DNA from: Oscillospiraceae bacterium
Lineage (GTDB): Bacteria; Bacillota; Clostridia; Oscillospirales; Oscillospiraceae
Direction: 5' to 3'
Length of the DNA: 57,053 nt
Assembly: GCA_017403885.1 (NCBI GenBank)
Contig: JAFRDM010000040.1
Span: 1-57,053, forward strand
Shown: positions 25,621 to 57,053 of the stretch, one piece after another
How positions within the stretch are numbered: the first letter of the stretch is position 1
Layout: every line of letters begins with the position of its first letter
Notes under the pieces: generated by a model
The model's database searches: none
What the model was told of the DNA's origin: nothing
The model's input: the letters and a program-made list of their open reading frames with translations, nothing else
Translations under genes and position numbers: made by a program

Positions 25621-25682
25621 CCCTGCGGCCTCCTTTTCTGCGGCGCTCCGTCCGCCCTTTTCCTCCGGGGATCCCCGCTTCA

Positions 25683-26027
25683 TCAGCCTTCGCACAGCGC
25701 GAGCAGCGCGCCGCGCTGCAGAAGGATCGTTTCGAGCATCGCCTTATAGTCGGCGTCCTGCCCGCCGCGCAGCAATTCTGTCAGCTCCGCGACCGGCGTG
25801 TAGATCGGCGTGAGCGCCAGATTGCCCAGCGAGCCCTTGAGGGCGTGGGCGGCCTCAAAGGCGGCCTTCCTGTCGCCGCTTTCGACGGCGGCGGCGAGCT
25901 TGTCAAATCCCGCGTCATGCAGCGACATGTTGACGAGCCGCAGATAGAAGGCCTCGTTGTTCAGGCAGCGGCCAAGGCCCTCTTCGGTATTCGCGCCGAG
26001 ACGGCGCAGAGCATCGATAGTCAGCAT
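25683..26027 (-). CDS. HPt phosphotransfer protein
   Basis: 114 residues, one all-helical HPt domain. The phospho-acceptor motif is AAHALKGSLGNL. It is the usual shuttle between a hybrid kinase receiver and a final response regulator, and here it lies between the hybrid kinase gene and the receiver-GGDEF-EAL gene, which supports a relay between them. Confidence 0.9.
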   Translation of the reverse strand: MLTIDALRRLGANTEEGLGRCLNNEAFYLRLVNMSLHDAGFDKLAAAVESGDRKAAFEAAHALKGSLGNLALTPIYTPVAELTELLRGGQDADYKAMLETILLQRGALLALCEG

Positions 26028-26087
26028 AGTGTTACCTCGATCGTGTTGATGATTGATGTGATGACCGGGCGCCTTTGCCGTTCGGCT

Positions 26088-32458: not shown

Positions 32459-32503
32459 GGGTAAAAATAACAGCTGCGGCCCTCCGATCAAGGAGGGCCG
32501 CAG
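32459..32503 (-). terminator. Terminator of the surface-fibre operon
   Basis: Minus strand: CTGCGGCCCTCC pairs with GGAGGGCCGCAG around TTGATC, followed by CTGTTATTTTTAC. It lies 34 bases after the sortase stop and closes the whole surface-protein operon. Confidence 0.88.
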
Positions 32504-32536
32504 TTGTCCTGACAGGCAGCCGCAGCGCGGATACGG

Positions 32537-33364
32537 TCACGCAAGCAGCGTGCCGCCGGCGCTGTCGACGGGGACCATCTTTCCGTGGATGACCGAGCGG
32601 GCCAGCGAAAAGACGTAGGCGCAGGTGGAGAGCATCACGTATTTCGCTTCTCCGTCGAGTTCTACGTCCGCCGTTACCGCAGAGCGCTGCTTTGTAAGCG
32701 CCAGATACTCGTCCAGCTCCGGCGACGGGCCCTGAAAGACCGTGTAGGCGTCGCTGGTGGCGGAGATGTAGTAGGCGGCAAAAAGCTCGACGCGGTAATC
32801 CCGCTCCGGCGTGAGGATCCACATGACAGGATGCTCGTCGAAATAGTCCTGCTTCGCCCACTTCTCCAGCGAGGCGAACATCGAGCCGTCTATCAGATGG
32901 TGGCCGTAGACGATCGTATTGCTGTCGGCGAAGTCCCTTCTGTTCAGGCATTCCGCAAACAGCGCCCCGCAGGGGTTGCTCCGGCGGTCATAGCTGTGGT
33001 CGATGTAGAAGTCGTTGTCGTTCGCCTGCGCGATCGGATAGTTGATCACCGTGTCCTCGCAGTAGATCCAGCCGATGATCTCGGGATTGTAAGCCCTCAG
33101 CTTTTCAAAGTCGACCGTGATGGGCGCGCAGATCCTTTCCGCTTTCCCGCTCCCGGTCTTGTCGCCGGGGCCGGGGTCGGCAGGCGCGGCGGAGCCGCTC
33201 TCCGCCGTCTCCGTCCGCTGGGTCGTGAATTCCCTCACGGCCGTCCGGTTGAGGCGCTTGTTCACGATATACTTGTAGTTGACGGAAACGACGATACCGG
33301 CGCAGAACAGAAACGCGCAGGCCAGAAGGATCATCATGATCCTGCGAAAGGTCCGTTTTTCCAT
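32537..33364 (-). CDS. srtB: Class B sortase
   Basis: 275 residues. An N-terminal membrane anchor lies at about 8-28. The catalytic residues are His155 (VYGHH), Cys248 (LSTC) and Arg256 (SLARSVIHG), with the C-to-R distance of class B enzymes. It attaches secreted proteins to the wall or polymerises pilus subunits on the outer membrane face. It is the last gene of the operon, 15 bases after the SipW-type peptidase. The likely local substrate is the 239-residue protein with a VVKTGD sorting signal; further substrates in the operon are less clear. Confidence 0.92.
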   Translation of the reverse strand: MEKRTFRRIMMILLACAFLFCAGIVVSVNYKYIVNKRLNRTAVREFTTQRTETAESGSAAPADPGPGDKTGSGKAERICAPITVDFEKLRAYNPEIIGWIYCEDTVINYPIAQANDNDFYIDHSYDRRSNPCGALFAECLNRRDFADSNTIVYGHHLIDGSMFASLEKWAKQDYFDEHPVMWILTPERDYRVELFAAYYISATSDAYTVFQGPSPELDEYLALTKQRSAVTADVELDGEAKYVMLSTCAYVFSLARSVIHGKMVPVDSAGGTLLA

Positions 33365-33379
33365 GTGGTCTCCCTCTTC

Positions 33380-33946
33380 TTATCTTCCCGGCTGCTGTTT
33401 TTCCTGCTCCGACCGGCGGCGTGCGCGCAGCCGCGAGCCGACCATGCGGAACAGCAGTCCGCTCACCGCGAAAACAGCCAGCGCGGCCTTTCCCTCCCGG
33501 GCGGAATAGAGCGTCAGCAGTCGGCCCAGCAGCGGGACGCACAGCCTGACGCGTCCGATCAGCTTCCAGTATGGCGTCGGATTGATGTCCGTCGATTTGT
33601 TGGCGTCGCCTTTGGTGATGAACACGCTCTCCTGCGGGCGGTTCTCTATCACCCGGTGCGTCACGACCGTTCCGTCGTCGTCAAAGGCGATGATATCGCC
33701 CGCGCGGATCTGTGAGATCCCGGCCGGCTCCACGTAAACGACGCTGCCGACCGGCAGGGCGGGCTCCATACTGCCGCTGACGACGCTGTAGGCCCGGTAG
33801 CCGAACAGGCGCGGCAGGGCCAAAGGCAGCGCGCTGAGGATCACGGCCAAAAGGATCAGCGTCCCCAAGACGGAGCAAAGGGCGGGAATGATGTTCCCGC
33901 CCCTTTTTTCCGGACGTTTTTGCACTTTAGGATCGTCCTGTGTCAT
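33380..33946 (-). CDS. SipW-type signal peptidase I
   Basis: 188 residues. Catalytic Ser59 lies in VSGSMEP after a membrane helix, and the general-base position carries His97 (VVTHRV) instead of Lys, which marks the ER/SipW (S26B) type. A second helix is near the C-terminus. In Bacillus, SipW cuts the TasA and TapA fibre proteins. Here two TasA-like proteins are encoded just upstream in the same operon, which are the obvious substrates. Start overlaps the preceding stop by 4 bases. Confidence 0.92.
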   Translation of the reverse strand: MTQDDPKVQKRPEKRGGNIIPALCSVLGTLILLAVILSALPLALPRLFGYRAYSVVSGSMEPALPVGSVVYVEPAGISQIRAGDIIAFDDDGTVVTHRVIENRPQESVFITKGDANKSTDINPTPYWKLIGRVRLCVPLLGRLLTLYSAREGKAALAVFAVSGLLFRMVGSRLRARRRSEQEKQQPGR

Positions 33947-35112
33947 TGTCCCTTTTTGTCTTCTTTCTTTTTCTTCGTGACAAGAAAGGCGATGGGTGTT
34001 GCGATGAGTCCCGCGAGGATCAGACCTCCGATGATCTTGACGAGGACAGGCAGCTTGCTGAACGCGTTGCCCTCCGTCTCGGACTGGGAACCCGGTCCGG
34101 CCTGAGGTACGTCAAGGTCGATGATCTCTTCGGGCTGTGCGGGGACCGTGGTTCCGGGTTCTGTGCCGCCCTGGTTCTCACCGGTCGCGCCGCCCTGGCT
34201 GCCGCCCTGGTTCTCGCCGGTCGCGCCGCCCTGATTGGCGCCCTGGTTCTCGCCGGTCGCGCCGCCCTGGTTGGCTCCCTGGTTCTCGCCGGTCGCGCCG
34301 CCCTGATTGGCGCCCTGGTTCTCGCCGGTCGCGCCGCCTTGGTTGGCTCCCTGGTTCGCACCCTGGTTGCCGCCCTGGTTGGCCCCCTGGTTCGCACCCT
34401 GGTTGCCGCCCTGGTTAGCTCCCTGGTTGCCGCCCTGGTTAGCTCCCTGGTTGCCGCCCTGGTTGGCTCCCTGGTTGCCGCCCTGATTGGCTCCCTGGTT
34501 GCCGCCCTGGTTGCCGCCCGGGTTGACAGGAACAACCGCAGCTCCGCCGCCCTGAGGGATCGGCTCGTAACGGAAGACCAGCTCGTTTTGAGACTCGTCG
34601 GCAGAGAGCGTCTTGGTCAGGTTATAGGCCTGCGGCATATAACCCTCGATGTAGAGGAACGCGACGACGGGCTTATCGCCTACATTGCCGTAGAACGTCT
34701 GCGCAGCGAGAAGATCGGCTCCCGTTGTGGCGTGCTGATAGCGCACCGTGTAGGTAACAGCCGTGCTCTTCATGCCGTAAGCGACCACGAAGTCAATGTC
34801 TCTCGTTACCGCGATCGAGGTACCGAAGGTGTAGACCGGATTGTTGTCATGACCGGCCTCGCGGAATCCTTTGGCATAGAAGCGGTCGTCCACGACCTTG
34901 ACCTGGTCGGCGGAAAAGCTGACGCTTCCGCCGCTCGGCACAGTAAGCGAGTAGACCGAACCGTTGCCGACCGTGAGTATGCCGACCGTGCCGTCGCCGC
35001 CGTAAAGGCGAACGGTGTAGCTGCTCGTGTTTTCGGCAAAAACAGATACGCACAGGCTGAAGATCAGCATCAGCGCGAAGGCGAGAGCCGCGATCTTTTT
35101 CATCTTTTTCAT
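33943..35112 (-). CDS. Membrane-anchored surface protein with MucBP-like domain and GNQ repeats
   Basis: 389 residues. Signal peptide 1-26 (ends SVFA). A beta-rich part follows with a MucBP-like segment near 120-185 (YTVRYQHATTGADLL ... YIEGYMPQAYNL). Then about 140 residues of G-N-Q repeats, the membrane helix VKIIGGLILAGLIATPIAFL and a Lys-rich tail. No LPXTG-type motif sits at the usual distance from the helix (VPQAGP lies about 20 residues before it), so anchoring by membrane helix is more likely than by sortase. Stop and start overlap both neighbours by 4 bases. Its role in the fibre operon is unknown. Confidence 0.85.
   Translation of the reverse strand: MKKMKKIAALAFALMLIFSLCVSVFAENTSSYTVRLYGGDGTVGILTVGNGSVYSLTVPSGGSVSFSADQVKVVDDRFYAKGFREAGHDNNPVYTFGTSIAVTRDIDFVVAYGMKSTAVTYTVRYQHATTGADLLAAQTFYGNVGDKPVVAFLYIEGYMPQAYNLTKTLSADESQNELVFRYEPIPQGGGAAVVPVNPGGNQGGNQGANQGGNQGANQGGNQGANQGGNQGANQGGNQGANQGANQGGNQGANQGANQGGATGENQGANQGGATGENQGANQGGATGENQGANQGGATGENQGGSQGGATGENQGGTEPGTTVPAQPEEIIDLDVPQAGPGSQSETEGNAFSKLPVLVKIIGGLILAGLIATPIAFLVTKKKKEDKKGQ
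34180..34530 (-). repeat. GGNQ/GANQ and GGATGENQGANQ coding repeats
   Basis: In the 389-residue protein, roughly 19 tetrapeptide units (GGNQ or GANQ, 12 bp) precede four to five 12-residue units GGATGENQGANQ (36 bp). The DNA copies are nearly identical, so the array is prone to length change. Gly/Asn/Gln-rich segments are typical flexible or self-associating spacers. Confidence 0.85.
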
Positions 35113-35828
35113 TTGCTCTCACCACCCTGTTTTTTTCTCTGGAGAATGCCGTCCACGGCGAGGGCCATGAAGAGCAGACCGCTGACTGCCATCCCGATGT
35201 AGAACGGAGAGATGTTCATTCTTTCGTCACCCGTCTTGACGACGTTGGTGGGCGTGACCTCGACCGCGAAGCGCATGCGAAGATCCGCCATCGAGTCCTG
35301 ATAGCCGTTGCCCTGCGTCTCGCCGTCGAGCGAGACCTTCAGCGTAACGACGCCGGTCTTTCCGTTCGCCATGGACTCGAGCGCGATGTAATTCTTCAGC
35401 GCGCTGTCAACGCCGTGCAGGCCTTCGGGCTCCGTGCCGTTCAGCTCGCCGCCGACCGTTTCACTGTCGTAGATCGTGACCGTCGAGCCGGCGGAGGGCG
35501 CATACGTCAGCACATAGGTGTAGGCGCCGCCGTTGGCCTTCGCCTGGCTGTCTTCAAGGGAGCGGACGATCTCGTTGAGGATGTACCAGTCGGCCGTCTT
35601 GCCGCTGGTGTTCCTGAGCGTGATCGTAAAGGTGACGTCGTCGCCGGGCTGCAGGCCGCTGGCAATGTCCGCAATGCTGGAGCTGCTGAAGTTGCTCACC
35701 AGCTTTTCATCTTTGGTGAACTCCACAAGCCAGCCGTCGCCTCCGGAGAGGTGTTCAGCGGACACGGAGAGGGGCAGTGCCAGCAGCAGGGAGAGGATCA
35801 GTACGAAAGCAAACAATGACTTTTTCAT
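35109..35828 (-). CDS. Sortase substrate with VVKTGD sorting signal
   Basis: 239 residues. Signal peptide 1-23 (ends SVSA). A beta-rich body contains GDDVTFTITLRNTSGKTADWY, a DUF11/CARDB-like fibre subunit pattern. The C-terminus has VVKTGD (196-201), eight residues, a membrane helix (about 210-230) and RKKQGG: a complete cell-wall sorting signal with a non-LPXTG motif. It is the only protein of the operon with an unambiguous sorting signal, so it is the likely target of the class B sortase. Confidence 0.85.
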   Translation of the reverse strand: MKKSLFAFVLILSLLLALPLSVSAEHLSGGDGWLVEFTKDEKLVSNFSSSSIADIASGLQPGDDVTFTITLRNTSGKTADWYILNEIVRSLEDSQAKANGGAYTYVLTYAPSAGSTVTIYDSETVGGELNGTEPEGLHGVDSALKNYIALESMANGKTGVVTLKVSLDGETQGNGYQDSMADLRMRFAVEVTPTNVVKTGDERMNISPFYIGMAVSGLLFMALAVDGILQRKKQGGESK

Positions 35829-35839
35829 TTTCCCTCACC

Positions 35840-36568
35840 TCACTTGTTGTTGATGCCCCAGGCGCTGAGCTTTGCCTGATCGGCGTTGTGGTCCTGCACG
35901 CTGTCGGCAATGACTTCGATGCAGAACTGCTTGCCGTTGTAGATAAAGCTCGTCCTGATGACGGTGACGCCGTTTTGGACGGAACTCGACTGGCTGACCT
36001 TCGTGAGGATCACGTCGTTGATTCTGACCGATTCGAGGAACGGGGTCGTATCCTCGCCGGGCGCGATGGGATTGCCGTAGTACAGGACCGTGCGCTCTTC
36101 GGTGGAAGAGCTTTCGTCAATGTGCCAGCCGTTGCCGGTCACAAAGCCCAACTCGATCCAGTCGGAGTTCATCTCCGGGAACTTGTTTCCGTTTTCATCC
36201 AGCCAGTACTTGAACACCGAAACACGGACGTACTCGTTGATGTCCGCGACGTTGCGGATCGCAAGGACCTCGGGATAGGTCTTGCCCGGAAGAAGCTTCG
36301 TATCGGCCTCGATCTGCTTGGCGATCGGGGTCTCGCTGCCCATCAGGGCATTCTTGCCCGCTACCGGGACAAATACGTCTTTGGCATTCTTCTCGATCAG
36401 GGCGAGGCCGATGTTGTAGACCTCCACCTCCGAGTTGTAGTACTCGGACTGGATGTTCAGCGCGGCCCGGGCTCCGCCCACGGTGCTGCTCCCGAGAAGG
36501 AGCAGCGCCAGGGCGAAGAGCACAGCCGTGACGGCGGGCTTGCTGAGGAATTTTCTAAAGTTTTTCAT
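35840..36568 (-). CDS. SipW-dependent TasA/camelysin-like secreted protein (242 aa)
   Basis: Long basic leader and hydrophobic segment (VLFALALLLLGSSTVGGARA) followed by ALNIQSEYYNSEVEVYNIGL. This is the form of SipW-type signal peptides on TasA/CalY relatives. The body is beta-rich (YPEVLAIRNVADINEYVRVSV) and ends without anchor. Likely cleaved by the SipW-type peptidase two genes further on. It could be a fibre subunit or an adaptor. Confidence 0.78.
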   Translation of the reverse strand: MKNFRKFLSKPAVTAVLFALALLLLGSSTVGGARAALNIQSEYYNSEVEVYNIGLALIEKNAKDVFVPVAGKNALMGSETPIAKQIEADTKLLPGKTYPEVLAIRNVADINEYVRVSVFKYWLDENGNKFPEMNSDWIELGFVTGNGWHIDESSSTEERTVLYYGNPIAPGEDTTPFLESVRINDVILTKVSQSSSVQNGVTVIRTSFIYNGKQFCIEVIADSVQDHNADQAKLSAWGINNK

Positions 36569-36586
36569 CTCAGTTTCCTCCCTCCG

Positions 36587-37123
36587 TTAAGGCTGCCCGC
36601 TGGTGTCCAAGACGATCGACCAGTCGGGGGCTTTGAGCGAACCGTCTGCGTTGTAATGCACAAGCGTGCTCTCGTAGACGACCGCTACGTTGAAGCTGGT
36701 GAACATGTGATCCTCGGCATCCTTCTCGGGGATGTTGGTGATCTCAAAGGTGATGGGCCCGGTCAGCTCGCCGGCTGCGAGGGGAAGCTGGTATTCCCAC
36801 CAGCCGTCCTTGAGCACCCAGGAGGCGTTCCCCTCTTTGTTTTCCACCAGCGGGTAGGTCTCGCCGGAGAAGGCCTTTACGCGGACCCAGATCGGGTCGC
36901 TTTCGACCTCGGGGTCTCCGGTCGGGTTTTTGACGTTTTCGATCTGTACCGTCTTCAGCCAGTCCTTGAAGTCCTCATGGATCTCGGTCTGGTATTGGAA
37001 GGTCACCGGGATCGCGCCCGTCGCGGCCGTGTTGTCTGTGAAGTACGCCACCGCCGGATTGAGTACGGCACAGGCGATCAGCAGCAACGCGAAAATGCTC
37101 AATACAAGATTTTTACGTTTCAT
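36587..37123 (-). CDS. SipW-dependent TasA-like secreted protein (178 aa)
   Basis: Signal LVLSIFALLLIACAVLNPAVAYFTDN: cleavage after AVA or AYF gives the (A)YFTD start seen in TasA-type fibre proteins. The body is short and beta-rich (PVTFQYQTEIHEDF ... ITFEITNIPEKDAEDHMFTSFNVAVVYEST). No membrane anchor. It is the gene directly after the giant adhesin (18 bases) and is probably a fibre-forming subunit (inference). Confidence 0.8.
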   Translation of the reverse strand: MKRKNLVLSIFALLLIACAVLNPAVAYFTDNTAATGAIPVTFQYQTEIHEDFKDWLKTVQIENVKNPTGDPEVESDPIWVRVKAFSGETYPLVENKEGNASWVLKDGWWEYQLPLAAGELTGPITFEITNIPEKDAEDHMFTSFNVAVVYESTLVHYNADGSLKAPDWSIVLDTSGQP

Positions 37124-37141
37124 TTTCTCGACCTCCTGTCC

Positions 37142-40100
37142 TTAGTCTTCCGGGGTGCCTCCGGAGGTTTCTCCGGAGGCGTTCCCATCGGTGGGTTTAT
37201 CGTCCCCTTCGCCGTCCTCGTCCTCGTCTCCCGAGCGTACGGGAGGCGGGGGCGGAAGCGCGGCTTCGGTATTCGGGGTGTTGTCGGACTTGCTCCAGTG
37301 CCAGCCAAGATCGCTGTCGTCGGGCTCGAACATGTTCACGATGCCGTGGCCGCCCTTCTCCTCAGGCACGTAGTCGTTGGAGAATTCGACGCCGACCGTG
37401 ACGTTCGCTTCGATGACAGTGGTCTGGTTCGCTTCGGAGGTAAGCACGTAGTGCGAGCCGGAGTAGGCTTCGGTGACCGTCACCTCAGCGCCGGCGGGGA
37501 TGTAGTTGAGGACCGTGCTCATCACGCCGCTCGGGTCGGAGGCGCTGCACGTGAGCACCGCGGTGTTGGAGTACACCGTCTTGCCGTCGATCTTGCCTAC
37601 GACCGTGAACACGAAGGTCGCATCCTCGCTGAGCTCGAAGCGCTCGAGCAGCTTGGTGATCCTCAGGTTGCCGTACTTGGGCGTATCCTCGATCGTCACT
37701 TCGATCGTCGGGACCTCGCCCTTCTCCTGCTCGTAATCCTTGGTCACGTCAACGACCGTGGACTCGCCGTCCTTGATGAGCGTGATACGGTAGCTGACCG
37801 TGATCAGGCCCTTCCTGACGATGATCTCCACCGGCTCGTCCAGCTTGCAGTAGCCGTCCGGAGCCTTGGTCTCGACGAGGTAGTAGGTGCCGGGCAGCAG
37901 ATCGCCCAGATCGACCTTGCCTTCCTCGTCGGTGACAAGAGACTCGGTGTTGAGCTTGCTGTAGGCGCTTACTTCTTCCACGGTGGGCAGCTCGAGAGCC
38001 TCGGGCTCTTCGGCCTCCTCGGCAGGATCCGCGTCGGGCGCTCTGTACAGATCGAACTCCGCGCCCTCGATCAGCTTGGTCTCGTCGGTGTAATCCTTCT
38101 TGACCAGCTTGATCTCGTAGTGGACCAGATCGTTCTCGATCTTGTCGCCGTCCAGCTTGCCGGTGTAGGCCTTGCCTTCGAAGGTCACAGCGCTGTCGTC
38201 GGCAACCGCGATTTCGACCTTGGCGGCCGTCTCGCCGTCGCGCGGCGTGGCGACGACCGTGTAGAGCGTGTCGTTGTCCCAGTAGCTGTCTTCGCTGCCT
38301 TCGCCGAGCTTGGTCTCCTTCAGGTAGTAGGTCTTCGGCTCGACGCTGACCGTGCCGTCCTCGGCCTTCGTGATCTCGAAGCTGATCTGACCGAAGTCGA
38401 CCAGACCGTTCTCGTCGGAGGTCACGACCGCCGGGACCTTGCTGCAGTTGCCCTCCGCGTCGACGAGGATCATCTCGGCGATCTCGGTGCACGCCTCATC
38501 CGTGTAGAGCGTGAATTCCACACCCTGCAGCGGCTCGGCGACTTCCTTGATCTTGCCGTCCTCGGCGACCTGGCCGAGCTTGTAGAGGCTGAACGGGATG
38601 GCTTCGGGCTCATGGAAGTTGGTCACTTCGATGGACCAGTAGCCAAGCTGCATCTCGCCGTTCTCGTCCTCGGCCGGAGCCGTGAACACAGGATCGCTGT
38701 AGATCACCGTGTAGCCGGACTCGAAGACGTCGGGAACTGTGATCGCCGCCTCGGAGAAGGTGTAGACGATGTTCTCGCCCTGCTTGCCTTCTCTGAATCT
38801 GGGCAGGTTCTCGAAGCTCCACTTGAACTCGCCGTTCTCGTCGGCCCTGACCGTTACGCTGTCGATCTCGACGCCGTCGGCCAGGAGCGCGATCGTGATG
38901 CTCTCCGGACGGATCATATCCTGATCGTCCGCGTCGTCCCAGATCTTCAGGCCGTTGATGTCGACCAGCTCGGGAACGTACTTGTTCGTGACTTCGATGT
39001 ACCAGTAAGCCTTCTGCAGCTCGCCGTTCTCATCAACGGCGGGAGGATTGTACTTGGGTTCGGTGTAGCTCACCGTGTAGCCGGCGACGAAGCCTGCGGG
39101 ACGCCTGATCTCAGCTTCGGAGAAGGTGTAGACAACCTCGACGCCCTGCTCGCCCGCCTTGAATCTCGGCAGATCCTTGAAGCTCCACTTGAACTCGCCG
39201 TTCTCGTCGGGCTCGACCGTTACGCTGTCGATCTCGACGCCGTCGGCCAGAAGCGCGATCGTGATGCTCTCCGGACGGACGCCGTCCTGATTATCCTTGT
39301 CGTCCCAGATCTTCAGGCCGTTGATGTCGACCAGCTCGGGCACGTGCTTGTTCGTGACCTCGATGGTCCAGTAGCCGTCCTCGTAGACGGGCTCGGCGTA
39401 GCTCACCGTGTAGCCGGCGACAAAGTCGGCGGGGTACTCGATCTCCGCTTCGGAGAAGCTGTACTCGTACTCGTTCTCCGCCATCGATTCGGCCGTGTTC
39501 AGCGTGCTAGGCGCGTAGACGGGCAGATCCGTGAAGCTCCACTTGAACTCGCCGTCCTCGTCAGCCGTGACAGTCACGCTGGCGATGCTGACGGGCTCGT
39601 CGTCGGAGTTCTTGATCTTGCGCAGCAGGTCGATCTGGATGCTCTCGGGACGGATATTGTCCTGATTCTCCGCGTCGTCCCAGATCTTCAGGCCGTCGAC
39701 GTGCGTGAACACAGGCGTGTTGATGAACTCGACGTCCTCAAGCTCTTTATCCTTCACGACGTTCAGCGTGCCGTCGCCGTTGTCGGTGACCGTGACCGTG
39801 ATCAGGAAGGTCTGCACCGAGTAGACGACGCCCTCGATGCCCTCGGCCGGGACATACTCCTTGACGAGGTAGTAGAAGTCCTTGCCGTTGAAGACATTCT
39901 TGGAATCGAGCGTCTCGGTGGAGAGGAATGTCTTACCGAAGTACTCGGTCACAACGATGTAACCGTCGTCGTCGGTCGTGAGCTTGTAGTTGAGCCTGGT
40001 CTCGTCCGTCGTGTTGAAGCGGATACTGCCGTCCGCGTCGTTGGCGACGGTCTGCAGAGGATCGTCGATGGCGCTGCCGCTTGCGTCGGCCTGGTAGAGC

Positions 40101-52100: not shown

Positions 52101-55100
52101 GGCTTGTTGTCCGTATCGGTCCCGGTCCCGCTGCCGCTGCCGCTGCCGGAGTTGGAGACGGCAATCTCCTCCGCCGTGATCACAAGGGCGTTGTAATTGC
52201 CGATCTGGGAATTGGGGAAGGTGGTGCAGCCGGCGCCGCCTTCGGGATAATCCTTGAAGGAGCCGTCCTTCCACGGGAACATGTTGTCATGGCCGGAGGC
52301 AAGCTCGACGAGGGCGTAGTCCTTGCCGCGCTCGAGATGCTGGAACTCCACAAGGCCGTTCGTGTCGCTCGTCTTCGGGTTTTGCAGGCCTTCCTTCTGG
52401 ACCAGGACCCAGTTGTCCCCTTCCCTGACGAAGAGACCGATGGTGGCGCCCTCAACGGCGGGCGGGGTCGTCCAGCCGGCCTGCCAGGCGTTGCGGAAGA
52501 CCTTGCGCGCCTTAAGGTCGACGCGGGTGGCGTTCTCGACCTTGAGCGGGTTGCCCTGCTTGTCCTTGTCGGTCACGTTGCTGCCGGTCGTGTTCAGGGT
52601 AAGCTCCGCCGTCTGACCGTCGGAGACCTTGTAGTAGGTCGTGGCTGCGGTGCCGGTCAGCGTTTCGGTAACGGTATAGGTGATATAGTCCCCCTGCGCG
52701 TCCTTCACGGGCAGATTCTCAAAGGTGACGGTGCCGTCCGCGCCGGTGTTCAGCGTGGTGGATTCCGCGCCGTTCACGCCCGGGGTGATGGTGATGGGGA
52801 AGCTGACGGACTTGGAGATCTCGCCGTCGAGATACTTGGTGACCTTCAGCTTGGCCCTGTTGGGGATGTTCTTGAAGGTGAAGGTCGCGTAGTTGTAGTT
52901 GGGCGAATTCTCCGCGCGCGGCGCCGAGGGCTGGTTATTGCTCGTCGTCACCGGATAGAAGGTGAGCGTCCGCCCGTTGTAGCGACCGCCGACCACCTGA
53001 CCCTGGACGTAAGCGCTGTCCATCTGATGATAGAGGTCGTAGTTGGTGTTGGGATCCAGATAGTCATCGGACGGCTTCTGGACCTCGGCGAAGTAATAGG
53101 TCGTGCCCGTCGGGAAATACATGTCGCTGACCATGGTGTTCGTCGCGTCGAGGACGTACTGGTCGCCAGCGTTCGGGTAAGGCACGTATTTTCCGTCCGC
53201 GTTTTTGGTGAACGCGGCAAACTTGGCGTTGCTGATATGGGTGCCGGTCGCGGCGCTGCTGACCTTCTTGATCGCGACCCGAGGATCATACTGGTTCAGG
53301 CACGTGATGTGATACACATAGGCGCTGCCGTCCTCGCTGATCACCGGGTTTCTGAGGTCGATCACGCCCACGGTCGTGGCCACGTCGCCGGTCACGCGGT
53401 TGCTCGCGTTCTGATACTCGCTCGCGCTCAGGGCGGCGTTGCCCAAAGCCTTGAAGTGCGTATTGTCGGGAACCTTGGTCTCTTTGAAGTAATAGATCTG
53501 GCCCGGCTTGAGATAGAACAGCGTGCCGCCGGATACCACCGAAACGCCGCTCAGATCAGCATCCTTCGCGATGTCGTAGGTGACGTTTCCGCCGCTGTTC
53601 GAGGTGTGGGCGACCTTGGCGTTCTTGGCGACATGGGTGCATTCCGGATCGGTGTAGACCGTGATCTCGGCGCCGGGGATGACCGAAGCGGGTCTGTTCC
53701 AGTCGCGCTTCCAGGCCCTGACCAGGACCACCTGTTCGTAGTTCTTCAGCAGCGTGCTGAAGGTGACCTGGTCGGAGCTGTTGCCAGTAGTGGGAATAAC
53801 GTAATAGGTCTTAGTCGTGCCGGCGGGATATTCGACGTCCTTGGTCGTCAGACCGGAACCGTCGGAATAGCCGGTCACCTCGGCCTCATCGAGGAGATAG
53901 GTGATCTTTCTGCCGTTCTCGTCCCATGTACGCAGACCTTCCCAGGTCGCGGTTTTGAGCGTGCCGCTCGTCTCGCTGCCGACGGGCTTGGCCCCGCCGG
54001 TGACCGGCGTCATGGTGTAATGGGTTTCGCCGTTCTCCACGTACTCCACATACTGGTAGAGCGTGACGTCGACCGTCTTGCCGGTCACGTAGTTCCAGTC
54101 GTTGTTGGAGGTGCCGTTGTTGTCGTAGAAGTTCTTGTTGACAGTGACCTTGATGTACTGGCGGTTGTAGAGGGATACCGCCTTGTCGGTCGCCGCGCCG
54201 TTCGAATCGACCAGCTGGATGGGATCGGTGTAGACCTTCTGGCCGGCTTCCTTGTTGCTGAGAGGATCATAATAGCCGGTGGGGATCGTCTCTTCGAAGC
54301 GGTACCAGTAGGTCTGCGGGTCCGCGCCGTCGGTGAAGGCGGGGAGCAGGGCCTGGATCTGGCCGTTGACGTTCACGGAGCTGTCAACGTCGGCCACAGT
54401 TTCCCAGTTAGTCGCATTCGGGTCAAGGCTGCGCTGCAGCACGAAGGTGCCGGGGAAGTCATAGGTCGCGGCAGCGGCCGGTTTGGCGTTGCTGCCTTCC
54501 GCGGTGCCGACGTACTTGGTCAGCGTCAGCGTGGCGTTCAGGCGCTTGTCGTGGATGTCCTTCTTCAGCTGCAGAGTGCCGTCCGTGATATCGTCGGGCA
54601 GGTTGATCGTCCAGGGGCTGTCGTCGGAGACCGCGAAGTTGGTGGGCGCGTGCGTCTCTTTCAGAACATAGGTGCCCTGCGGCAGACGCTCGAAGAAGGC
54701 GAAGCCGGCATCGGTAGACGTGTCGCTGCCGACAAGCTTCTCGGTCGCACCGTCTTTGAAGTAGAGTTCAAATGTGGCGCCGCCGACCGTCTGGTTGCCG
54801 TCGTCGTACTTGGTGATCTTGATGGAGTAGACAGTTTCCTGGTTCTTCATGTTGACCGCCCAGGTACTGTCCGCGGCGGGTGTGTAGTTCGTCATGGCCG
54901 CGAGCTCTGCCGCGGAATTGTACTGGGTCATGACGAGCTGCTGCTTCGGCGTAAGATTCTCCGTCACGGTATAGGGGATGCCCGGAACGAGGAGGTAATC
55001 CTTGTGCGTCTTGATCGTGTAGCTGGCCGCACCGGTCATGTCGTTGCCGTTGTCATCCTTCGCGATCTTGAAGCCGGTCGTCTCGTCCGGCTCGTAGACC

Positions 55101-57053
55101 GTGAAAGCGGCCGTGGAGGAGAGAGTATATTCGATCTCGCCGTAGTAGTCCGGGAAGATTGCGGAGTTCTTGGGCGTGGTCTGGTCGGTATCGTAATCGA
55201 TCTCGTTGTTGCCGTAGTCCTTCAGCGTCTTGGTAAGCGTGAGCGTGGCAGCGCCCGTGTACGGGAGCGTAACGTCGTCGCCGGCCTCGCCGCTGTTGTT
55301 CTGGTCGGGCAGATTGGCAAGCTCGGCGTGCATGGCCATCGTGTTTTCGACGTCCAGCGTATAGCCAGCGCTCTCCGGGAAGTGGGCGATCCATGTGCTG
55401 TCCACCGGGTACTTCATCGTGACCTTGTACTTGGTGTAGGTGGGCGTCCAGGTGTCGCCGTTCAGGTCGCCGTCGGAGTCGATGGACTGATAGTGGTCCA
55501 TCACCAGCAGGTTGGTCGTGGAATCCATATCGAACTCGTCATCCGAGCTCCAGATGGTCACGGCAGTCCCGGCCGTCAGGTTCGCGCCGGCGTTGGGCGC
55601 GTCGTTGTCATACCTCTGGATCGTGAAGAGCTCCGGATCACCTATGGTGAGGCCGGCCTTGCTGAGTTCCTTGGTAAAGGTGTCCGTCAGGGTGATGAGG
55701 TCAACCTGATCGCGGCCCGGGTTGCTGTAGTAGTTCGCGTTCTTGTTGATATCGGTGCCGGAGAGCAGGCCGACGCCGACGTCCCACGTGAAGGTGACGT
55801 ACGTGTCGTTGTCGGTGAGGCTGGCGGAGGTCAGGTCCTTCGTCACCTTCCACTGGTCGGTGGAAACGGTGGTGAGATTCTGCAGGGGCATGACGATGCT
55901 CTGCTCGTAGGTCTTGACCTCATAGGAGGGCGCCTGCTTCTGACGGTCGACAACGGTGAACTGCGTGGAGAAGGTCACCGCGTCAGCCGGGAAGACGATG
56001 GGATTCTCGGAATCTCTGACCGCGTCTTCCGTGCCGTTGCCGCAGATAAAGAACTTCAACGTCATGAAGAAGTCCGCCTGCGCGGCGTTCACCGGATCGA
56101 TGCTGATGGTGTAAATTCTGGAGCCGTCTTCCTGCACCGCCGTGTCGTAATTCAGACCGCCGCCGGCGTCGTTGAGGATGAGCTCCTTGGGCAGGTGCAG
56201 AGTAACCTTGCTGGGACCGTAGCTGTCGTACATGGCGGCCACGGGGTTCCACTGCTGGCCCCAGGTATCGGGATCAAGGAAGCCGTAGTACAGCGAGTAC
56301 TCGACCAGCTGACCCGCTCTGAGAGGATGGTCGGCGTCGTAGGGGGTGGTCATCGTGATGTCCGACGCGATCTTCGAGGTATAGTGTTCGGCGCCGGGGA
56401 GATAGTGATCGTCGGACCAATCCAGGATCATCTGGTGGATGGTCGCGGGGGGCAGAAGGTCGTCGCCGCCTTCGCCTTCGCCGTCACGGTCGCCTTCTTC
56501 GCCCTCGCTGCCCTCGCCCTGCGTGGTGAACGTCAGGATGGAGCAGCTATCCAATGAGAAAAAAGCTTCGTCCCCCTCCACATTGGAAGCGACGATCTCC
56601 TGCTCCACTTTCGTGGTCTCGGCGATCCTCAGCTGGTCGGCGTCAAGCGCGCCGTTCTCGTTCGTGACGTCGATCTTGACGTGCAGTACGTCGACGGGCT
56701 GTTCCACCGCCAGGTTCTTGACCTTGACGGAAATGCTGTCGCCGTAGTCTTCAAGATCGTACTTTTCGCCGCCGGAGAGGATGCAGACGTCGTAAGCGTA
56801 GACGACGGTCGTCTCTCCGCTCGCGTCGCCGGTCTGCGTCTCATAGATCCTCTGCGCTACCTCCAGCGGGATGGCCACGACCTGAAGCTCGGCGTCGCTC
56901 GGAAGCATGCCGCTGACTTCAAAGACCTGACCGCCGCAGGAAGCGGAGATCGTATGCGCATAGCGCTCCGGCTCGGCGGGCTGCTCGGGCTCGGCGGGCT
57001 GCTCCGGTTCGGCGGGCTGCTCCGGTTCGGCGGGCTGCTCGGGCTCGGCGGGC
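37142..57053 (-). CDS. Giant multi-domain isopeptide surface adhesin, N-terminus outside window
   Basis: The frame is open across 6636 visible residues; the true start and signal peptide lie beyond position 57053. From N to C: PAEPEQ repeats; an adhesin-type region (about 56900-54900); about twenty SpaA/Cna-B-like prealbumin domains (patterns such as GATFELY, YVLKETHAPTNF), with a DUF11-like part about 46900-45000; eight Spy0128/FctA pilin isopeptide-linkage domains (about 43450-39715); three Cna-B domains (about 39715-38590); two SpaA domains; then a tail rich in P, D, E and G with no LPXTG or membrane helix. These folds form internal Lys-Asn cross-links and make rigid stalks. Followed 18 bases later by the TasA-like genes. 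Confidence 0.93.
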   Translation of the reverse strand, partial: PAEPEQPAEPEQPAEPEQPAEPEQPAEPERYAHTISASCGGQVFEVSGMLPSDAELQVVAIPLEVAQRIYETQTGDASGETTVVYAYDVCILSGGEKYDLEDYGDSISVKVKNLAVEQPVDVLHVKIDVTNENGALDADQLRIAETTKVEQEIVASNVEGDEAFFSLDSCSILTFTTQGEGSEGEEGDRDGEGEGGDDLLPPATIHQMILDWSDDHYLPGAEHYTSKIASDITMTTPYDADHPLRAGQLVEYSLYYGFLDPDTWGQQWNPVAAMYDSYGPSKVTLHLPKELILNDAGGGLNYDTAVQEDGSRIYTISIDPVNAAQADFFMTLKFFICGNGTEDAVRDSENPIVFPADAVTFSTQFTVVDRQKQAPSYEVKTYEQSIVMPLQNLTTVSTDQWKVTKDLTSASLTDNDTYVTFTWDVGVGLLSGTDINKNANYYSNPGRDQVDLITLTDTFTKELSKAGLTIGDPELFTIQRYDNDAPNAGANLTAGTAVTIWSSDDEFDMDSTTNLLVMDHYQSIDSDGDLNGDTWTPTYTKYKVTMKYPVDSTWIAHFPESAGYTLDVENTMAMHAELANLPDQNNSGEAGDDVTLPYTGAATLTLTKTLKDYGNNEIDYDTDQTTPKNSAIFPDYYGEIEYTLSSTAAFTVYEPDETTGFKIAKDDNGNDMTGAASYTIKTHKDYLLVPGIPYTVTENLTPKQQLVMTQYNSAAELAAMTNYTPAADSTWAVNMKNQETVYSIKITKYDDGNQTVGGATFELYFKDGATEKLVGSDTSTDAGFAFFERLPQGTYVLKETHAPTNFAVSDDSPWTINLPDDITDGTLQLKKDIHDKRLNATLTLTKYVGTAEGSNAKPAAAATYDFPGTFVLQRSLDPNATNWETVADVDSSVNVNGQIQALLPAFTDGADPQTYWYRFEETIPTGYYDPLSNKEAGQKVYTDPIQLVDSNGAATDKAVSLYNRQYIKVTVNKNFYDNNGTSNNDWNYVTGKTVDVTLYQYVEYVENGETHYTMTPVTGGAKPVGSETSGTLKTATWEGLRTWDENGRKITYLLDEAEVTGYSDGSGLTTKDVEYPAGTTKTYYVIPTTGNSSDQVTFSTLLKNYEQVVLVRAWKRDWNRPASVIPGAEITVYTDPECTHVAKNAKVAHTSNSGGNVTYDIAKDADLSGVSVVSGGTLFYLKPGQIYYFKETKVPDNTHFKALGNAALSASEYQNASNRVTGDVATTVGVIDLRNPVISEDGSAYVYHITCLNQYDPRVAIKKVSSAATGTHISNAKFAAFTKNADGKYVPYPNAGDQYVLDATNTMVSDMYFPTGTTYYFAEVQKPSDDYLDPNTNYDLYHQMDSAYVQGQVVGGRYNGRTLTFYPVTTSNNQPSAPRAENSPNYNYATFTFKNIPNRAKLKVTKYLDGEISKSVSFPITITPGVNGAESTTLNTGADGTVTFENLPVKDAQGDYITYTVTETLTGTAATTYYKVSDGQTAELTLNTTGSNVTDKDKQGNPLKVENATRVDLKARKVFRNAWQAGWTTPPAVEGATIGLFVREGDNWVLVQKEGLQNPKTSDTNGLVEFQHLERGKDYALVELASGHDNMFPWKDGSFKDYPEGGAGCTTFPNSQIGNYNALVITAEEIAVSNSGSGSGSGTGTDTDNKPQTLFDLGDVINSNHWVQFHIKKWIDATKDPVTGKYPYMDLPGTATPNASEGDSPLDNAVFELWRIVLPEGVDTVNFKETGWNYPADDELHNWKSLGVYSSGTLYTWDGERMEGEFLTDADSDINERYIYLLVEKNAGPNGGIMVPSFKYTFFHALGTDFTVTVPGYSPRDNTYEMDKVKHDDIMNTRPSGDGGGVIYLASIRIAKWRDSYNETTGQLTNDYQPLPGAQFEIRVGSPTGAVMANLTVGLDANYSGGSSSDPNDIRPSVAQTGTYLLSFNDDGTCDIYDYETEETIADNITPVTFEYTVGEGENAVTRTGYKVLVYIKETWAPDGYGYDNSWYPMWLCFLNARVGSSSGASWVFNDAYYVRNKVPNTTDPNYHEILLTDQGSQTTARVNSAYTSDSYYTGLLYKEEPSFVRIVDYPMHNTMVTVHKYGYTPTKDTLGQNSTAAHLDTLSQSAINRVSLGNVTMVIQKKNDNGGWDYWDYRENIPGEIAEAKFTTLPDGTFQFPDGLPEGTYQIWEDNLNENTAYEMAYPAGRNRVFTVTKATLHLSIYNPKKIDFTIHKTDFSGTPLTGVTFQLKQGNTVMYTGVESGENPGTYVFTNTAGSTLIDSGTYTLVESKAGYSRAYLKEYLQSVYGLGALVDGTTVGYTWSASTANVEGTDEESVISINPATGEGKPNILTGKASLELTVKNPKMTDVTLTKIDELTGNKINTAATFALYYKPFTVDFSAASNEVTVSIPDAAYTATSTSNVTTAMTGAGYYRYVSSSTYQYNTGRIYTFAEGTPDTNGLVTDTVTNASGGTAGQGVISLKNLKPGIYVFYETTAPTNYSIIKDSNNRNIFYTVVVTGGLPVTVNAPDSLKKATVKNYLPNVEGDTREITTLYAASTNGQTVGVTAENRPKVKLRATKTIATSMIGDLPSTEAWSVTFNVYSSQTTTTKFASVTITNETRQNNANNVMDITFKQTTSGNTNKAQWFVVGQDYYLEEVINSPVSANFTLGTIEFDGVTLTRLSNGRYKFRINSVDSEQVGSNSSNANYCKLKVNATNEWIYGQVDFLKLDKTYNPPQPSTAMSGAEFKICYEENGQWVKIDEAVLTEDPAHPGYYSFYFPLHSVENTTYRIYETKAPADFILDTTSYIEVQLSKENNKVTASTSLVNSKGNHINIIKYDSAYGTNYSRAGDDDAAFTLYRLTGDESTGMTWEAVETKSIKNTEGVEAQISFLTVPGVVYAIAETNYRLDKYSGIDSVWQGETELHGVELKVDGATVMLYGQPVLRYDLGASTDDVTIKVYNEKYVTPRIEKIDVGGYQGNEDNSAVKATANYAIYEIPNGELTTAATAAQVEAFIADTEHHPYLLTGKADTIDNNLANGTYGLWTTDTVTKRWNPDKSYLIVETKVGKKSGGEYNTLRKDDPRVEWFVVVPANPDSLVWQLKNVYGNATVTLTKSAVNGQAGDVTNDIRDGHVESLMTGDRKVVFDIKPTVTGKNQMLETFEVYENGLTCDVDGLDLVYKFTQIDVGGASQNVDLFGENFTATISAKVSFYTGLITADMTDEQIEAMKISGRDVVINNVESGYTVQASQIPQNARSFKITYYSQQVINKTAEGTGFHDRYSLGEVFRAQTTRVYATVTQQANGTFKNGVTPITKINNAAKTVLKYPKWSDDGSGTTPVTVKPNASASVIVDPIKLPKVMVEKNASTMTVQFGSQEYADITYTLEIKNVSDYDFDYPVLLDILPTGVDYVANSASVGTGSAQAETFDLNPEPVTVQGNPSIIFHNDEPVSEPETAVIFYLDGTLKPHSTVTLSYTARVKITATYFSGSELQNDVYLSSTSTDRYFTTDNPRGLTFTDDSGQLGDKLSDEAIERQGTAVAREGALDAALDPYSTDYYGWVSASKKVSVGNMTTVTLKKQVYGDQDAGYHDGLGTSTRTNLAATPAPTHGWVKWMLAVTNGFSQQDYIDHIVIGDVISKPGDFGDVYKNSKWETIFDHIILVYNNQETDEVPASDYTVYYYTVDTASARTAVINATSDTTQLTEANGWTTTKPSDLSTVYAFVMVFDPDYQIQKHHTLIVTYESEVVNIESNEVFDQVAFLNANNDFYSNYYYLGRPMFMRSNPVSVTLMDKPVEIQGDVWIDEDWTDLQLASGNRRPYEKYKVIQELVGLDGTPENSNVKFSIFDDRSPENSIGVRTDDTGAMSQHSGAESIQHFRFGSYQDANGVTKGGLGAARVESSPLYNGDQLNVNALSGQDPYNYHLKAEFKNASLANVFKLTGNKSPNYFHSEDPGTLTTGSVSFRDNNFLSDNGSDTSFVMKPFFIPYAAVIDQTKDIGFRMVRSLVINKVEKDTSLPIQDAKFSIYGPFDEFAGTAASGNALKFTKVSDGVYAYEGGATGVTELVTNSEGKITITGLNWWKEYVVKETYTPDQYSIAGATLTTDTQNQTDLIGRDALTGGDDNDGYQSGYAEYSVLTASATEFTFRVKLPHTQRGIANNTMSVTVANPSGTGFSFQKVGEQYAEDGSETRAPLKGIKFALFTLPEGSALTNANLVPFQQNGSNVIAESDVTGKVEFEEIPYGTYYMKEISLGDNTIFWSNETIYKVVVNHDNTVTITAESGDALLPDTDPEQTGMLVASDDPNYQGYTILNKIQRISVDGEKQWVENDDIGSVLRPEDQQVTIRLYKNKTATENLDPIQTTTASYTNSWKWSFTGLIKYSYTIDSTGTITATEINYTVDESEIPYYTFEVQNGTTSNSYIVVNTVNGVLKISKVVEKDDEFATEKTFTIKVKLEKPGEGDQTVPVTGTFKLQRTVPTPVGSLQDITFDSNGEATFTIQKDETWMIYGLPKGASYTISEVPANANGWSLVSIQPDNGTIAENNTVYASTVTNTYKAEGGIVISGKKEMVGKPLGDMQFTFQLVRLDGETEIPLGDAFTVTNDGNGNFSFPEIKYYLHKEIPAGETDRNDVKVWYYRVKEIKPETNPIDGVTYAQDPVDFSVTVTDNGDGTLSAVKTQGTPAIKFINTFGAIKPVPIGGMKILHGRLLKEGEFSFQLSKGTTKLGPTVTNSADGSFDFGGIVYEIVSATDGTITLKETYKADLGGTGGTLLSTTVLKDSTTDLFVNDIYTTDFTYTVEEIVPAEANRLPGVAYTTDTQTVTVTVEYNRSTGELSVVRDPLTDLEIDFINTYEVENNIPVTGLKILRGRTLAAGEFTFKLSKGTAVLNDSVTNAADGSFDFGGFVYKIAAATDGTITLTESYKAADADSAALVSSMVVPADAFVGNIYTTTFTYTVEEIVPDPGLTGVIYNNTPHDITVTVTYDKSTGELTVTKSPALAAEIDFINTYEVENNIPVTGLKILRGRTLAAGEFTFKLSKGNEVLNDSVTNKLDGTFDFGGFVYKIANAVDGTITLTESYKAAGANSATQVSTATVDPNAFVNDVYTTTFTYTVEEIVPDDADKLPGVTYNNTPHDITVTVTYNRDTGELTVTKSPELAAEIDFINTFSAVKPIDIQGLKILHGRELDPDEFTFKLLKGDDVLNDSVTNMLDGTFDFGGFEYEIASAVDGTITLKETYKSDLSATGGTPLSTTVLKSSTVDLFENDVYTTTFEYVVEEIVPDDADKLPGVTYNNTPHTITVTVTYNKDTGEMTVTKSPETAVEIDFINTYEVSEPIDIQGLKILHGRKLNEGEFTFKLSKDDRVLNDSVTNAADGSFDFGGFEYHIAGAVDGTITLTESYKADLSGDTAEVLSTTDITGEFDGDVCTTTFEYVVEEIIPDPGLTGIGYTTETRTVTVTVSYDKSTGVLTVTKDPALAAEIDFINTYEVEKDVPANGLKILNGRELAEGEFTFKLSNDDGVLNDSVTNAADGIFDFGGFDYKIAAATDGTITLTETYKEDLSAAVGRELSTTVIKSSTVDLFDGDVFEITFDYYVEEVIPDDENKVPGVTYDPETAVFFVTVTYDRSTGELTVTKDPETAAELKLTNTYEAEGEITVEAKKTLKGETLEGGEFSFELYQADASGSAIDDPLQTVANDADGSIRFNTTDETRLNYKLTTDDDGYIVVTEYFGKTFLSTETLDSKNVFNGKDFYYLVKEYVPAEGIEGVVYSVQTFLITVTVTDNGDGTLNVVKDKELEDVEFINTPVFTHVDGLKIWDDAENQDNIRPESIQIDLLRKIKNSDDEPVSIASVTVTADEDGEFKWSFTDLPVYAPSTLNTAESMAENEYEYSFSEAEIEYPADFVAGYTVSYAEPVYEDGYWTIEVTNKHVPELVDINGLKIWDDKDNQDGVRPESITIALLADGVEIDSVTVEPDENGEFKWSFKDLPRFKAGEQGVEVVYTFSEAEIRRPAGFVAGYTVSYTEPKYNPPAVDENGELQKAYWYIEVTNKYVPELVDINGLKIWDDADDQDMIRPESITIALLADGVEIDSVTVRADENGEFKWSFENLPRFREGKQGENIVYTFSEAAITVPDVFESGYTVIYSDPVFTAPAEDENGEMQLGYWSIEVTNFHEPEAIPFSLYKLGQVAEDGKIKEVAEPLQGVEFTLYTDEACTEIAEMILVDAEGNCSKVPAVVTSDENGLVDFGQISFEITKAEDGTVSVEPKTYYLKETKLGEGSEDSYWDNDTLYTVVATPRDGETAAKVEIAVADDSAVTFEGKAYTGKLDGDKIENDLVHYEIKLVKKDYTDETKLIEGAEFDLYRAPDADPAEEAEEPEALELPTVEEVSAYSKLNTESLVTDEEGKVDLGDLLPGTYYLVETKAPDGYCKLDEPVEIIVRKGLITVSYRITLIKDGESTVVDVTKDYEQEKGEVPTIEVTIEDTPKYGNLRITKLLERFELSEDATFVFTVVGKIDGKTVYSNTAVLTCSASDPSGVMSTVLNYIPAGAEVTVTEAYSGSHYVLTSEANQTTVIEANVTVGVEFSNDYVPEEKGGHGIVNMFEPDDSDLGWHWSKSDNTPNTEAALPPPPPVRSGDEDEDGEGDDKPTDGNASGETSGGTPED
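38590..39715 (-). repeat. Three Cna-B coding repeats (about 366 bp period)
   Basis: Three near-identical copies of a Cna-B module, each starting with GLKIWDD (near 39690, 39330, 38960) and containing RPESI, FKWSF and FSEAEI motifs. Spacing is about 366 bp (122 codons). Confidence 0.85.
39715..43450 (-). repeat. Tandem array of eight FctA/Spy0128-type pilin domains
   Basis: Eight consecutive modules with pattern GEF.F.L..DG.FDFGG ... VEEI.P ... GVTY ... TVTVTY ... EIDFINTY. Copies 2-7 are very alike, with GLKIL codons near 43020, 42535, 42062, 41588, 41103 and 40630, a spacing of about 471-484 bp. Copies 1 and 8 are more diverged. DNA similarity between copies makes homologous copy-number change likely. 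Confidence 0.87.
56945..57053 (-). repeat. PAEPEQ coding repeats (18 bp)
   Basis: Four PAEPEQ units and one PAEPER unit are visible at the edge, continuing outside the window. Proline/glutamate spacer in the N-terminal part of the giant adhesin. Confidence 0.85.

What the first reader, a model, noticed from the sequence alone, without database searches (positions are those of the whole stretch)
32459..57053. Self-contained surface-fibre operon: giant isopeptide adhesin, TasA-like subunits, SipW peptidase and class B sortase
Seven minus-strand genes lie within 0-18 bases of one another (several with 4-base overlaps) and share one terminator. They encode a protein of more than 6600 residues built from Cna-B/SpaA/FctA modules, two SipW/TasA-type secreted proteins, a VVKTGD sortase substrate, a GNQ-repeat membrane protein, a SipW-type peptidase and a class B sortase. 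SipW/TasA systems build Bacillus biofilm fibres and sortase systems build pili; combining both with a giant adhesin in one operon looks like an uncommon hybrid fibre machine. That the two chemistries act on the same fibre is inference.
Basis: partly seen in the sequence, partly recalled or inferred. Interest (0 to 1): 0.85.

Follow-up and report, generated by a model that had tools for sequence, protein, structure and literature searches.

The report
Giant adhesin on shared fibre base
A bacterium related to gut species carries a seven-gene cluster, kept in nearly the same order in many other bacteria, that appears to build a wall-anchored base for either an assembled hair-like fibre or, as here, one enormous single protein in its place.

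Summary
In detail: seven minus-strand genes (giant, two SipW-type secreted proteins, VVKTGD protein, GNQ protein, SipW-like peptidase, class B sortase) lie end to end with one terminator; the giant's N-terminus is lost at the contig end. The single-system reading is strongly supported: in 80 named loci found by the second SipW-type protein alone, neighbours recur in order (80/80, 78/78, 79/79, 79/79; peptidase 66/72) in Lachnospiraceae, Oscillospiraceae, Erysipelotrichaceae and Coriobacteriia. (1) The giant has no sortase signal; it sits where most relatives have a 333-518-residue secreted protein X and shares X's C-terminal domain and tail. (2) In 70 of 71 short-X loci a class C sortase lies within about 1.1 kb upstream; four giant-X loci with readable flanks have none nearby. 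So the giant seems to replace a sortase-built pilus on a shared base, though shared descent leaves only 2-3 independent contrasts. (3) Class B sortase is optional (adjacent in 19/69), mostly its own lineage, sometimes fused to SipW. The subunits are distant BsaA relatives, not TasA. Docking of X onto them is inferred. Ten paper searches listed no description.

The parts
37142..57052 (-). giant surface protein, at least 6,636 residues, N-terminus cut by the contig end; stalk of SpaA/Cna_B/FctA/DUF7601 modules; occupies the X position of the cassette
37370..37630 (-). DUF5979 domain of the giant, shared with the one short X protein scanned (L054)
   Evidence: PF19407, 30.2 and 32.5 bits, cut-off 25; blastp 38.6% over 233 columns to the 359-residue X of L139
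37328..37354 (-). C-terminal tail motif GGHGIVNMF, followed by a low-complexity acidic end; no sortase motif, no membrane segment; proposed docking tail
   Evidence: related tail in 57 of 80 X-domain proteins by the first pattern, 79 of 80 by a pattern loosened after seeing the misses
36587..37123 (-). P0006 (called TasA here for short): SipW-type secreted protein, distant BsaA relative
35840..36568 (-). P0005 (called TasB here): second SipW-type secreted protein, distant BsaA relative; the marker used for searches
35109..35828 (-). P0004 (KTGD): secreted protein with C-terminal VVKTGD (35226-35243), hydrophobic segment and basic tail; predicted sortase substrate
33943..35112 (-). P0003 (GNQ): protein with GNQ repeats and a C-terminal hydrophobic segment; no Pfam or NCBIfam family
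33380..33946 (-). P0002: SipW-like signal peptidase with SGSMEP and THRV motifs
32537..33364 (-). P0001: class B sortase with GHH, LSTC and RSV motifs; groups with other cassette sortases
32474..32503 (-). intrinsic-terminator-like site after the sortase gene

Best explanation
The seven genes are one surface-fibre system, a form of a cassette found in many Bacillota and Coriobacteriia: X - TasA - TasB - KTGD - GNQ - SipW (- SrtB). Shown by sequence: gene order, shared domains, motifs, grouping of the sortase. Inferred: the SipW-like peptidase processes the two BsaA-like proteins; these assemble outside the membrane into a short chain or fibre; the KTGD protein is attached to the wall by the class B sortase (or another sortase in the genome) and ties that assembly to the wall, with GNQ as membrane partner; X, through its C-terminal domain and conserved tail, docks onto the assembly. 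In most relatives X is short and is thought to be the base of a class C sortase pilus encoded just upstream. Here X has become a giant chain of isopeptide-type modules, so one polypeptide serves as shaft and base, and no pilus polymerase is needed.
For: 80 named loci found by TasB alone: TasA adjacent in 80/80, X 78/78, KTGD 79/79, GNQ 79/79, SipW 66/72; models trained only on ten loci of the window's genus find TasA, KTGD, GNQ, SipW, X within 7 kb in 80, 79, 79, 70, 74 of 80. All 80 TasA-TasB and all 79 TasB-KTGD gaps are at most 50 bp, overlaps included. Giant and short X share the C-terminal domain and tail. 70 of 71 short-X loci have a class C sortase within about 1.1 kb upstream (class by match to solved class C sortases); of the 60 with at least 4 kb upstream, 52 also hold an LPXTG-type protein there and 38 both a large and a mid-sized one. 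Six genomes with giant X, the window's included, have no match to that sortase family in the assembly; a seventh has one, beside its other, short-X copy. On a quick tree 22 of 26 non-cassette class B sortases form one branch (97% SH-aLRT) that excludes the window's, which falls among cassette sortases. SipW-SrtB is one ORF in 7 loci needing 4-5 changes on that tree; KTGD-GNQ and GNQ-SipW fusions occur too. KTGD members match the sortase B sorting-signal model TIGR03063 in 7/70.
Against: No structure could be predicted, so docking is untested. Profile comparison links TasA with TasB (96.6%) and with KTGD (91.5%), but both alignments include the signal peptide; TasB with KTGD gives 4.5%. The giant/pilus exclusion is confounded by descent: about 5 switches, 2 forced by supported branches, 2-3 independent contrasts, sign test not significant. 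The flank of the window's giant is missing and the assembly is 77.5% complete. The closest relative G041, whose X is cut at a contig end, has class C sortase matches on another contig, with in-frame stops in the better one. In G405 and G480 the copies with X of 1,072-1,087 residues have no class C sortase upstream but do have a pair downstream in the same run of genes. The sortase tree is not clean: 4 of 38 cassette rows (L127, L130, L133, L213) sit on the non-cassette side and one contig counted as non-cassette (L119 = L194) sits on the cassette side. In C. perfringens an srtB beside sipW-bsaA was deleted without effect on BsaA polymer (PMC7395162, passages). Link between KTGD motif and SrtB presence is not significant (p = 0.31).
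Confidence: 0.55

Rival explanations
1. Two independent products share one operon: the BsaA-like pair makes a separate matrix fibre, as BsaA does in C. perfringens, while the giant is an ordinary fibrillar adhesin held some other way. Co-location reflects common regulation only.
For: C. perfringens BsaA polymerises by itself, even when made in E. coli (PMC7395162, passages). Both SipW-type proteins are sub-threshold BsaA relatives. In one training set of fibrillar adhesins a known anchor was found in 846 of 1,666 (PMC9210967, passages).
Against: X and TasA are adjacent in 78/78 loci with sequence for it; the X C-terminal domain is kept when what precedes it differs (short protein, giant, LRR-headed giant), as expected if it has a partner in the cassette; no recognisable sortase signal in the 80 X-domain proteins scanned.
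Confidence: 0.27
2. The class B sortase polymerises or attaches fibre subunits directly, as Spy0129 does in S. pyogenes with the signal-peptidase-like SipA, so this is an FCT-type pilus in which the giant is backbone.
For: The FCT operon also pairs a class B sortase with a signal-peptidase-like protein (PMC3019223, passages); the giant has 8 FctA (Spy0128-like) modules; P0001 matches the solved Spy0129 chain 3psq, though as the weakest of 15.
Against: The giant and 80 of 80 X-domain proteins (one regular expression, last 55 residues) lack a sortase motif; SrtB is adjacent in only 19/69 cassettes (23/80 within 7 kb), so it cannot be the general polymerase.
Confidence: 0.1
3. The giant is an assembly or expansion artefact of repeated modules, and the real gene is a short X.
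For: Repeated modules can be misassembled; the window's genome is fragmented (91 contigs).
Against: Open for 6,636 codons with modules of several families; giants of 1,928 to 4,669 residues occur in four other genomes at the same position, two of them in tandem in one genome.
Confidence: 0.04

Closest known systems
Clostridium perfringens sipW-bsaABCRSD locus with srtB in its 5' flank (PMC7395162, passages read)
   Same: SipW-type peptidase, SipW-dependent secreted matrix protein, further putative secreted proteins, a putative sortase gene named srtB next to them
   Different: No giant or pilus genes in the passages read; two-component regulator in the operon; srtB deletion had no effect; window proteins match BsaA only below the curated cut-off. 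Homology of bsaB/C/D to KTGD/GNQ was not tested
Streptococcus pyogenes pilus operon with Spy0129 and SipA (PMC3019223, passages read)
   Same: Class B sortase with a signal-peptidase-like protein; Spy0128-like (FctA) fold
   Different: There the sortase polymerises pilins with EVPTG-type motifs; here the FctA modules lie in one chain with no sorting signal, and SipW-type BsaA-like proteins are present
Class C sortase pili (general knowledge recalled; class C sortases seen upstream of the cassette in relatives)
   Same: Isopeptide-domain shaft, wall anchoring
   Different: The window's assembly has no match to that sortase family; the shaft is a single polypeptide
Fibrillar adhesins (PMC9210967, passages read)
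   Same: Very long, stalk of repeated domains
   Different: No known anchor; proposed anchor is the X tail on a dedicated base
Bacillus cereus TasA/CalY/CapP filaments (PMC13082335, passages read)
   Same: SipW-processed fibre proteins
   Different: No match to the Peptidase_M73 family in the window's genome; sortases are part of the locus, whereas that system is described as sortase-independent

Membership tests
TasA/CalY (Pfam Peptidase_M73) | match to PF12389 | tested here: not met
   no match in the window's genome, while the control B. subtilis rings; 0 of 69 TasB members match any Pfam family at E 0.01
BsaA (TIGR04090) | score above the curated cut-off of 60 bits | tested here: not met
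   21.6 and 17.1 bits in the window; 55/69 TasB and 38/72 TasA members match at E 0.01, so distant kinship is likely
SipW-dependent secreted proteins | SipW-type signal peptide (TIGR04088) | tested here: inconclusive
   7/72 TasA members match TIGR04088; an AYFT-type junction in 86/90 by pattern; the window's P0006 has AYFTDN but was not among the TIGR04088 matches shown for it
SipW-like signal peptidase | signal peptidase model and Ser/His motifs | tested here: met
   TIGR02228 passed, Bacillus SipW model NF046067 not passed (79.2 vs 190); both motifs present in the window; in 79 relatives trimmed to the model match the Ser motif is found in 73, the His motif in 53
Class B sortase | TIGR03064 and His/Cys/Arg motifs | tested here: met
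   172.6 bits vs 153.75; GHH, LSTC, RSV in the window; solved SrtB chains match
Sortase-assembled pilus | LPXTG-type signal on the shaft protein and a class C polymerase | tested here: not met
   giant lacks a signal; no match to the A7 class C family in the 77.5% complete genome; upstream flank unseen
S. pyogenes FCT-type pilus | class B sortase polymerising an FctA pilin with an EVPTG-type motif | tested here: not met
   FctA modules present but no such C-terminal motif in the giant
Fibrillar adhesin | long stalk of repeated domains | tested here: met
Fibrillar adhesin | adhesive head domain | not testable with these tools
   N-terminus lies beyond the contig end
Fibre of BsaA-like subunits | polymerisation | not testable with these tools
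   needs biochemistry; structure prediction was off

The most novel reading that the evidence does not exclude
A new way to mount surface fibres: a dedicated base of SipW-processed BsaA-like proteins plus a wall-anchored KTGD protein receives, through a conserved X domain and tail, either a class C sortase pilus or a single giant 'pre-polymerised' pilus. The X tail would be one of the unknown anchors of fibrillar adhesins that lack a sortase signal.
Probability: 0.35. Interest if true: 0.82.

Novelty: new variant of a known kind. Interest (0 to 1): 0.66.

Why it matters
It joins two surface chemistries usually studied apart (SipW-dependent matrix proteins and sortase pili) in one conserved cassette. 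It suggests that a pilus can be replaced by one giant protein on the same base. It offers a concrete candidate for the missing anchors of fibrillar adhesins, which PMC9210967 names as an open point (passages). Several carriers are named strains, so it is testable.

Tried and rejected
TasA membership was tested and dropped. PDB sequence searches with the TasA, TasB and KTGD profiles gave no believable hit. Looking for the giant's head: the first 660 residues of the internal-ATG ORF match no Pfam family at E 0.1. The N-terminal parts of five giants elsewhere were scanned: one has BspA-type LRR repeats, the other four nothing above cut-off. Homology of nine giants to 21 large and 49 mid-sized LPXTG-type proteins is limited to a few short stalk stretches, so I do not claim that the giant is a fusion of those genes. 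A KTGD-motif/SrtB association is not significant. The short/giant versus class C sortase association (Fisher p 4e-6, 70/71 against 0/4) ignores descent; with descent only 2-3 contrasts remain. 'Bindosome' (weak BasC hit) led, in the listing, to archaeal structures and was dropped. Plasmid search by P0005: no match. Passages on pili in a Bulleidia paper concern Tad and competence pili. A survey of isopeptide domains was looked at in passages (PMC12617251) and not used.

Rows dropped and limits of the sets: one search found 105 stretches and kept 80; several assemblies give two or three of these, and at least seven contigs equal, by length, contigs of the unnamed genus set (for example L168 and G138), so the two sets overlap. 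X is not visible in L201 and L205 and is cut in L176; of the remaining 77, 71 are short and 6 long. Of the 6 long, upstream flanks were read for L136, L156, L161 and L193; L166 and L192 end at or near contig ends. One short-X locus, L211, has no class C sortase in the locus. The second-round models used were trained partly on the loci they count; one search repeats the count with first-round models. The KTGD pattern count of 62/88 was on sequences trimmed to the model match and is an undercount; one search used whole proteins. The tree took its non-cassette rows from the best-matching loci, a capped list, and holds some contigs twice. The sequences were run with the quick method.

Full report
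WHAT IS THERE. The seven minus-strand genes are real and correctly placed, nearly touching, with one terminator-like site. The contig ends inside the giant, so its start and everything upstream are unknown. The peptidase and class B sortase pass curated models; P0003 has no family; the two SipW-type proteins are weak BsaA relatives and not TasA. Over ten pieces the giant shows FctA in 8 stretches, SpaA in 9, Cna_B in 6 (one below cut-off), DUF7601, DUF11 (just under cut-off) and a C-terminal DUF5979. It ends in a low-complexity acidic tail with no sortase motif or membrane segment.

IS IT ONE SYSTEM? P0006 was found in 11 of 99 genomes, the own one included, all of the same genus. The P0005 profile was found in 22 of 102 genomes of the genus, 19 of them strongly. 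I read the loci of all 19: the order TasA-TasB-KTGD-GNQ holds in each, with TasB split over frames in one (G116) and KTGD fused to GNQ in another (G001). A search by P0005 profile in named genomes gave 80 loci (some from the same assembly, and overlapping the genus set). Chosen by P0005 only, they show its neighbours almost without exception: TasA 80/80, X 78/78, KTGD 79/79, GNQ 79/79, SipW 66/72, SrtB adjacent 19/69. First-round models, trained on ten loci of the window's genus, agree. By NCBI names: 39 Lachnospiraceae, 15 Oscillospiraceae, 7 Erysipelotrichaceae, 7 Coriobacteriaceae/Atopobiaceae, 12 other or unplaced. 16 of 80 titles name a body site, each of them in an animal gut. In 393 genomes of the class 21 had a match, the own one included.

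WHAT IS THE GIANT? In most relatives the gene before TasA is a secreted protein X of 333-518 residues (71 of 77 loci). The giant's last part aligns with X (38.6% over 233 columns, E 1.6e-28); both the giant and the one short X scanned pass DUF5979. X proteins share a tail of the type G-x-G-[IV]-x-N-x-F: 57 of 80 by the first pattern against 7 of 1,347 other ORFs; 79 of 80 by a pattern loosened after seeing the misses, against 79 of 1,347. Upstream of short X, 70 of 71 loci have a class C sortase within about 1.1 kb; its profile matches solved class C sortases far better than class A ones. Of 60 such loci with 4 kb or more upstream, 52 hold an LPXTG-type protein there. Giant X occurs at 1,928, 3,685, 3,996 and 4,669 + 3,010 residues in four other genomes with readable flanks; none has that sortase in the stretch read. 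Genome-wide, the window's genome and five others with giant X have no match to that family; a seventh has one beside its second, short-X copy. Against a clean picture: G041, the window's nearest relative, has class C matches on another contig, the better one with in-frame stops; G405 and G480 have copies with X of 1,072-1,087 residues, no class C sortase upstream, but a pair downstream in the same run, just before the next copy in G405. The reading that one long polypeptide can stand in for the polymerised pilus is limited by descent: parsimony counts 5 switches, 2 forced by supported branches, and 2-3 independent contrasts.

THE SORTASE. On a quick tree 22 of 26 non-cassette class B sortases form one branch (97% SH-aLRT); the window's lies outside it, among cassette sortases. 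Exceptions: four cassette rows (L127, L130, L133, L213) lie on the non-cassette side, mostly on long branches, and L119 (= L194), near but not in the cassette, lies on the cassette side. SipW and SrtB form one ORF in 7 loci (three of the genus, two of another family, two named loci); the tree asks for 4-5 changes. Such fusions suggest that the two enzymes work on one pathway. The KTGD protein is the plausible substrate: TGD is nearly invariant in the alignment of 70; 7/70 members match the sortase B sorting-signal model and 12/70 another sortase-dependent family; a T-[GS]-[DE] pattern is present in 20 of 20 loci with SrtB and 44 of 49 without, not a significant difference.

MECHANISM. Shown: order, domains, motifs, grouping. 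Inferred: SipW processing, assembly of the BsaA-like pair, wall attachment of KTGD, docking of X. In C. perfringens BsaA polymerises alone and does not need the neighbouring srtB (PMC7395162, passages); this supports polymerisation of such proteins and warns against giving the sortase that job. In S. pyogenes a class B sortase, with a signal-peptidase-like protein in the operon, does build a pilus (PMC3019223, passages).

NOVELTY. Ten paper searches in an open-access library showed no title or abstract start describing this cassette or a SipW-sortase fusion. I saw listings, several of them cut short, plus passages of the papers named; subscription papers and preprints are not covered. The parts are known; the composite and the giant/pilus exchange look new, so I call it a new variant of a known kind.

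Noticed in passing
window 13462-27782: Next to the fibre operon lie a type II/IV secretion ATPase (16588-17646), a T2SSF protein (19295-20338), GGDEF and response-regulator-GGDEF-EAL proteins and a hybrid histidine kinase: a type IV filament and cyclic-di-GMP neighbourhood. ATPase-like ORFs, judged by eye only, also lie near the cassette in L043, L054 and L216.
   Followed up: partly
window 1-4806: A second large surface-type protein, cut by the contig end, with BspA-type leucine-rich repeats, Flg_new and MBG_2 domains.
   Followed up: no
window 35777-49441 (+): A 4,554-codon open frame runs antisense to the giant; probably a by-product of composition, not examined.
   Followed up: no
L043:13694-15163, L046:5315-6739, L050:3324-4778, L127:3679-4974, L130:10437-11675, and one ORF each in L164 and L204: Single ORFs combining a SipW-like signal peptidase and a class B sortase.
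   Followed up: partly
L217:4614 to L218:7832 (G530): Two giants of 4,669 and 3,010 residues in tandem with the same X tail before TasA; the same genome has a second cassette (L223) with an X of at least 2,800 residues.
   Followed up: partly
L192:670-9444: A 2,924-residue giant X whose N-terminal part has BspA-type LRR repeats; the same genome has a short-X copy with class C sortase (L222).
   Followed up: partly
L136, L174: Further large proteins with the X domain, 2,019 and 2,356 residues, lie inside or just after the cassette.
   Followed up: no
L056:4357-6402: KTGD and GNQ proteins fused into one 681-residue ORF in a cassette without class B sortase; similar fusions in L136, L145, L151.
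   Followed up: no
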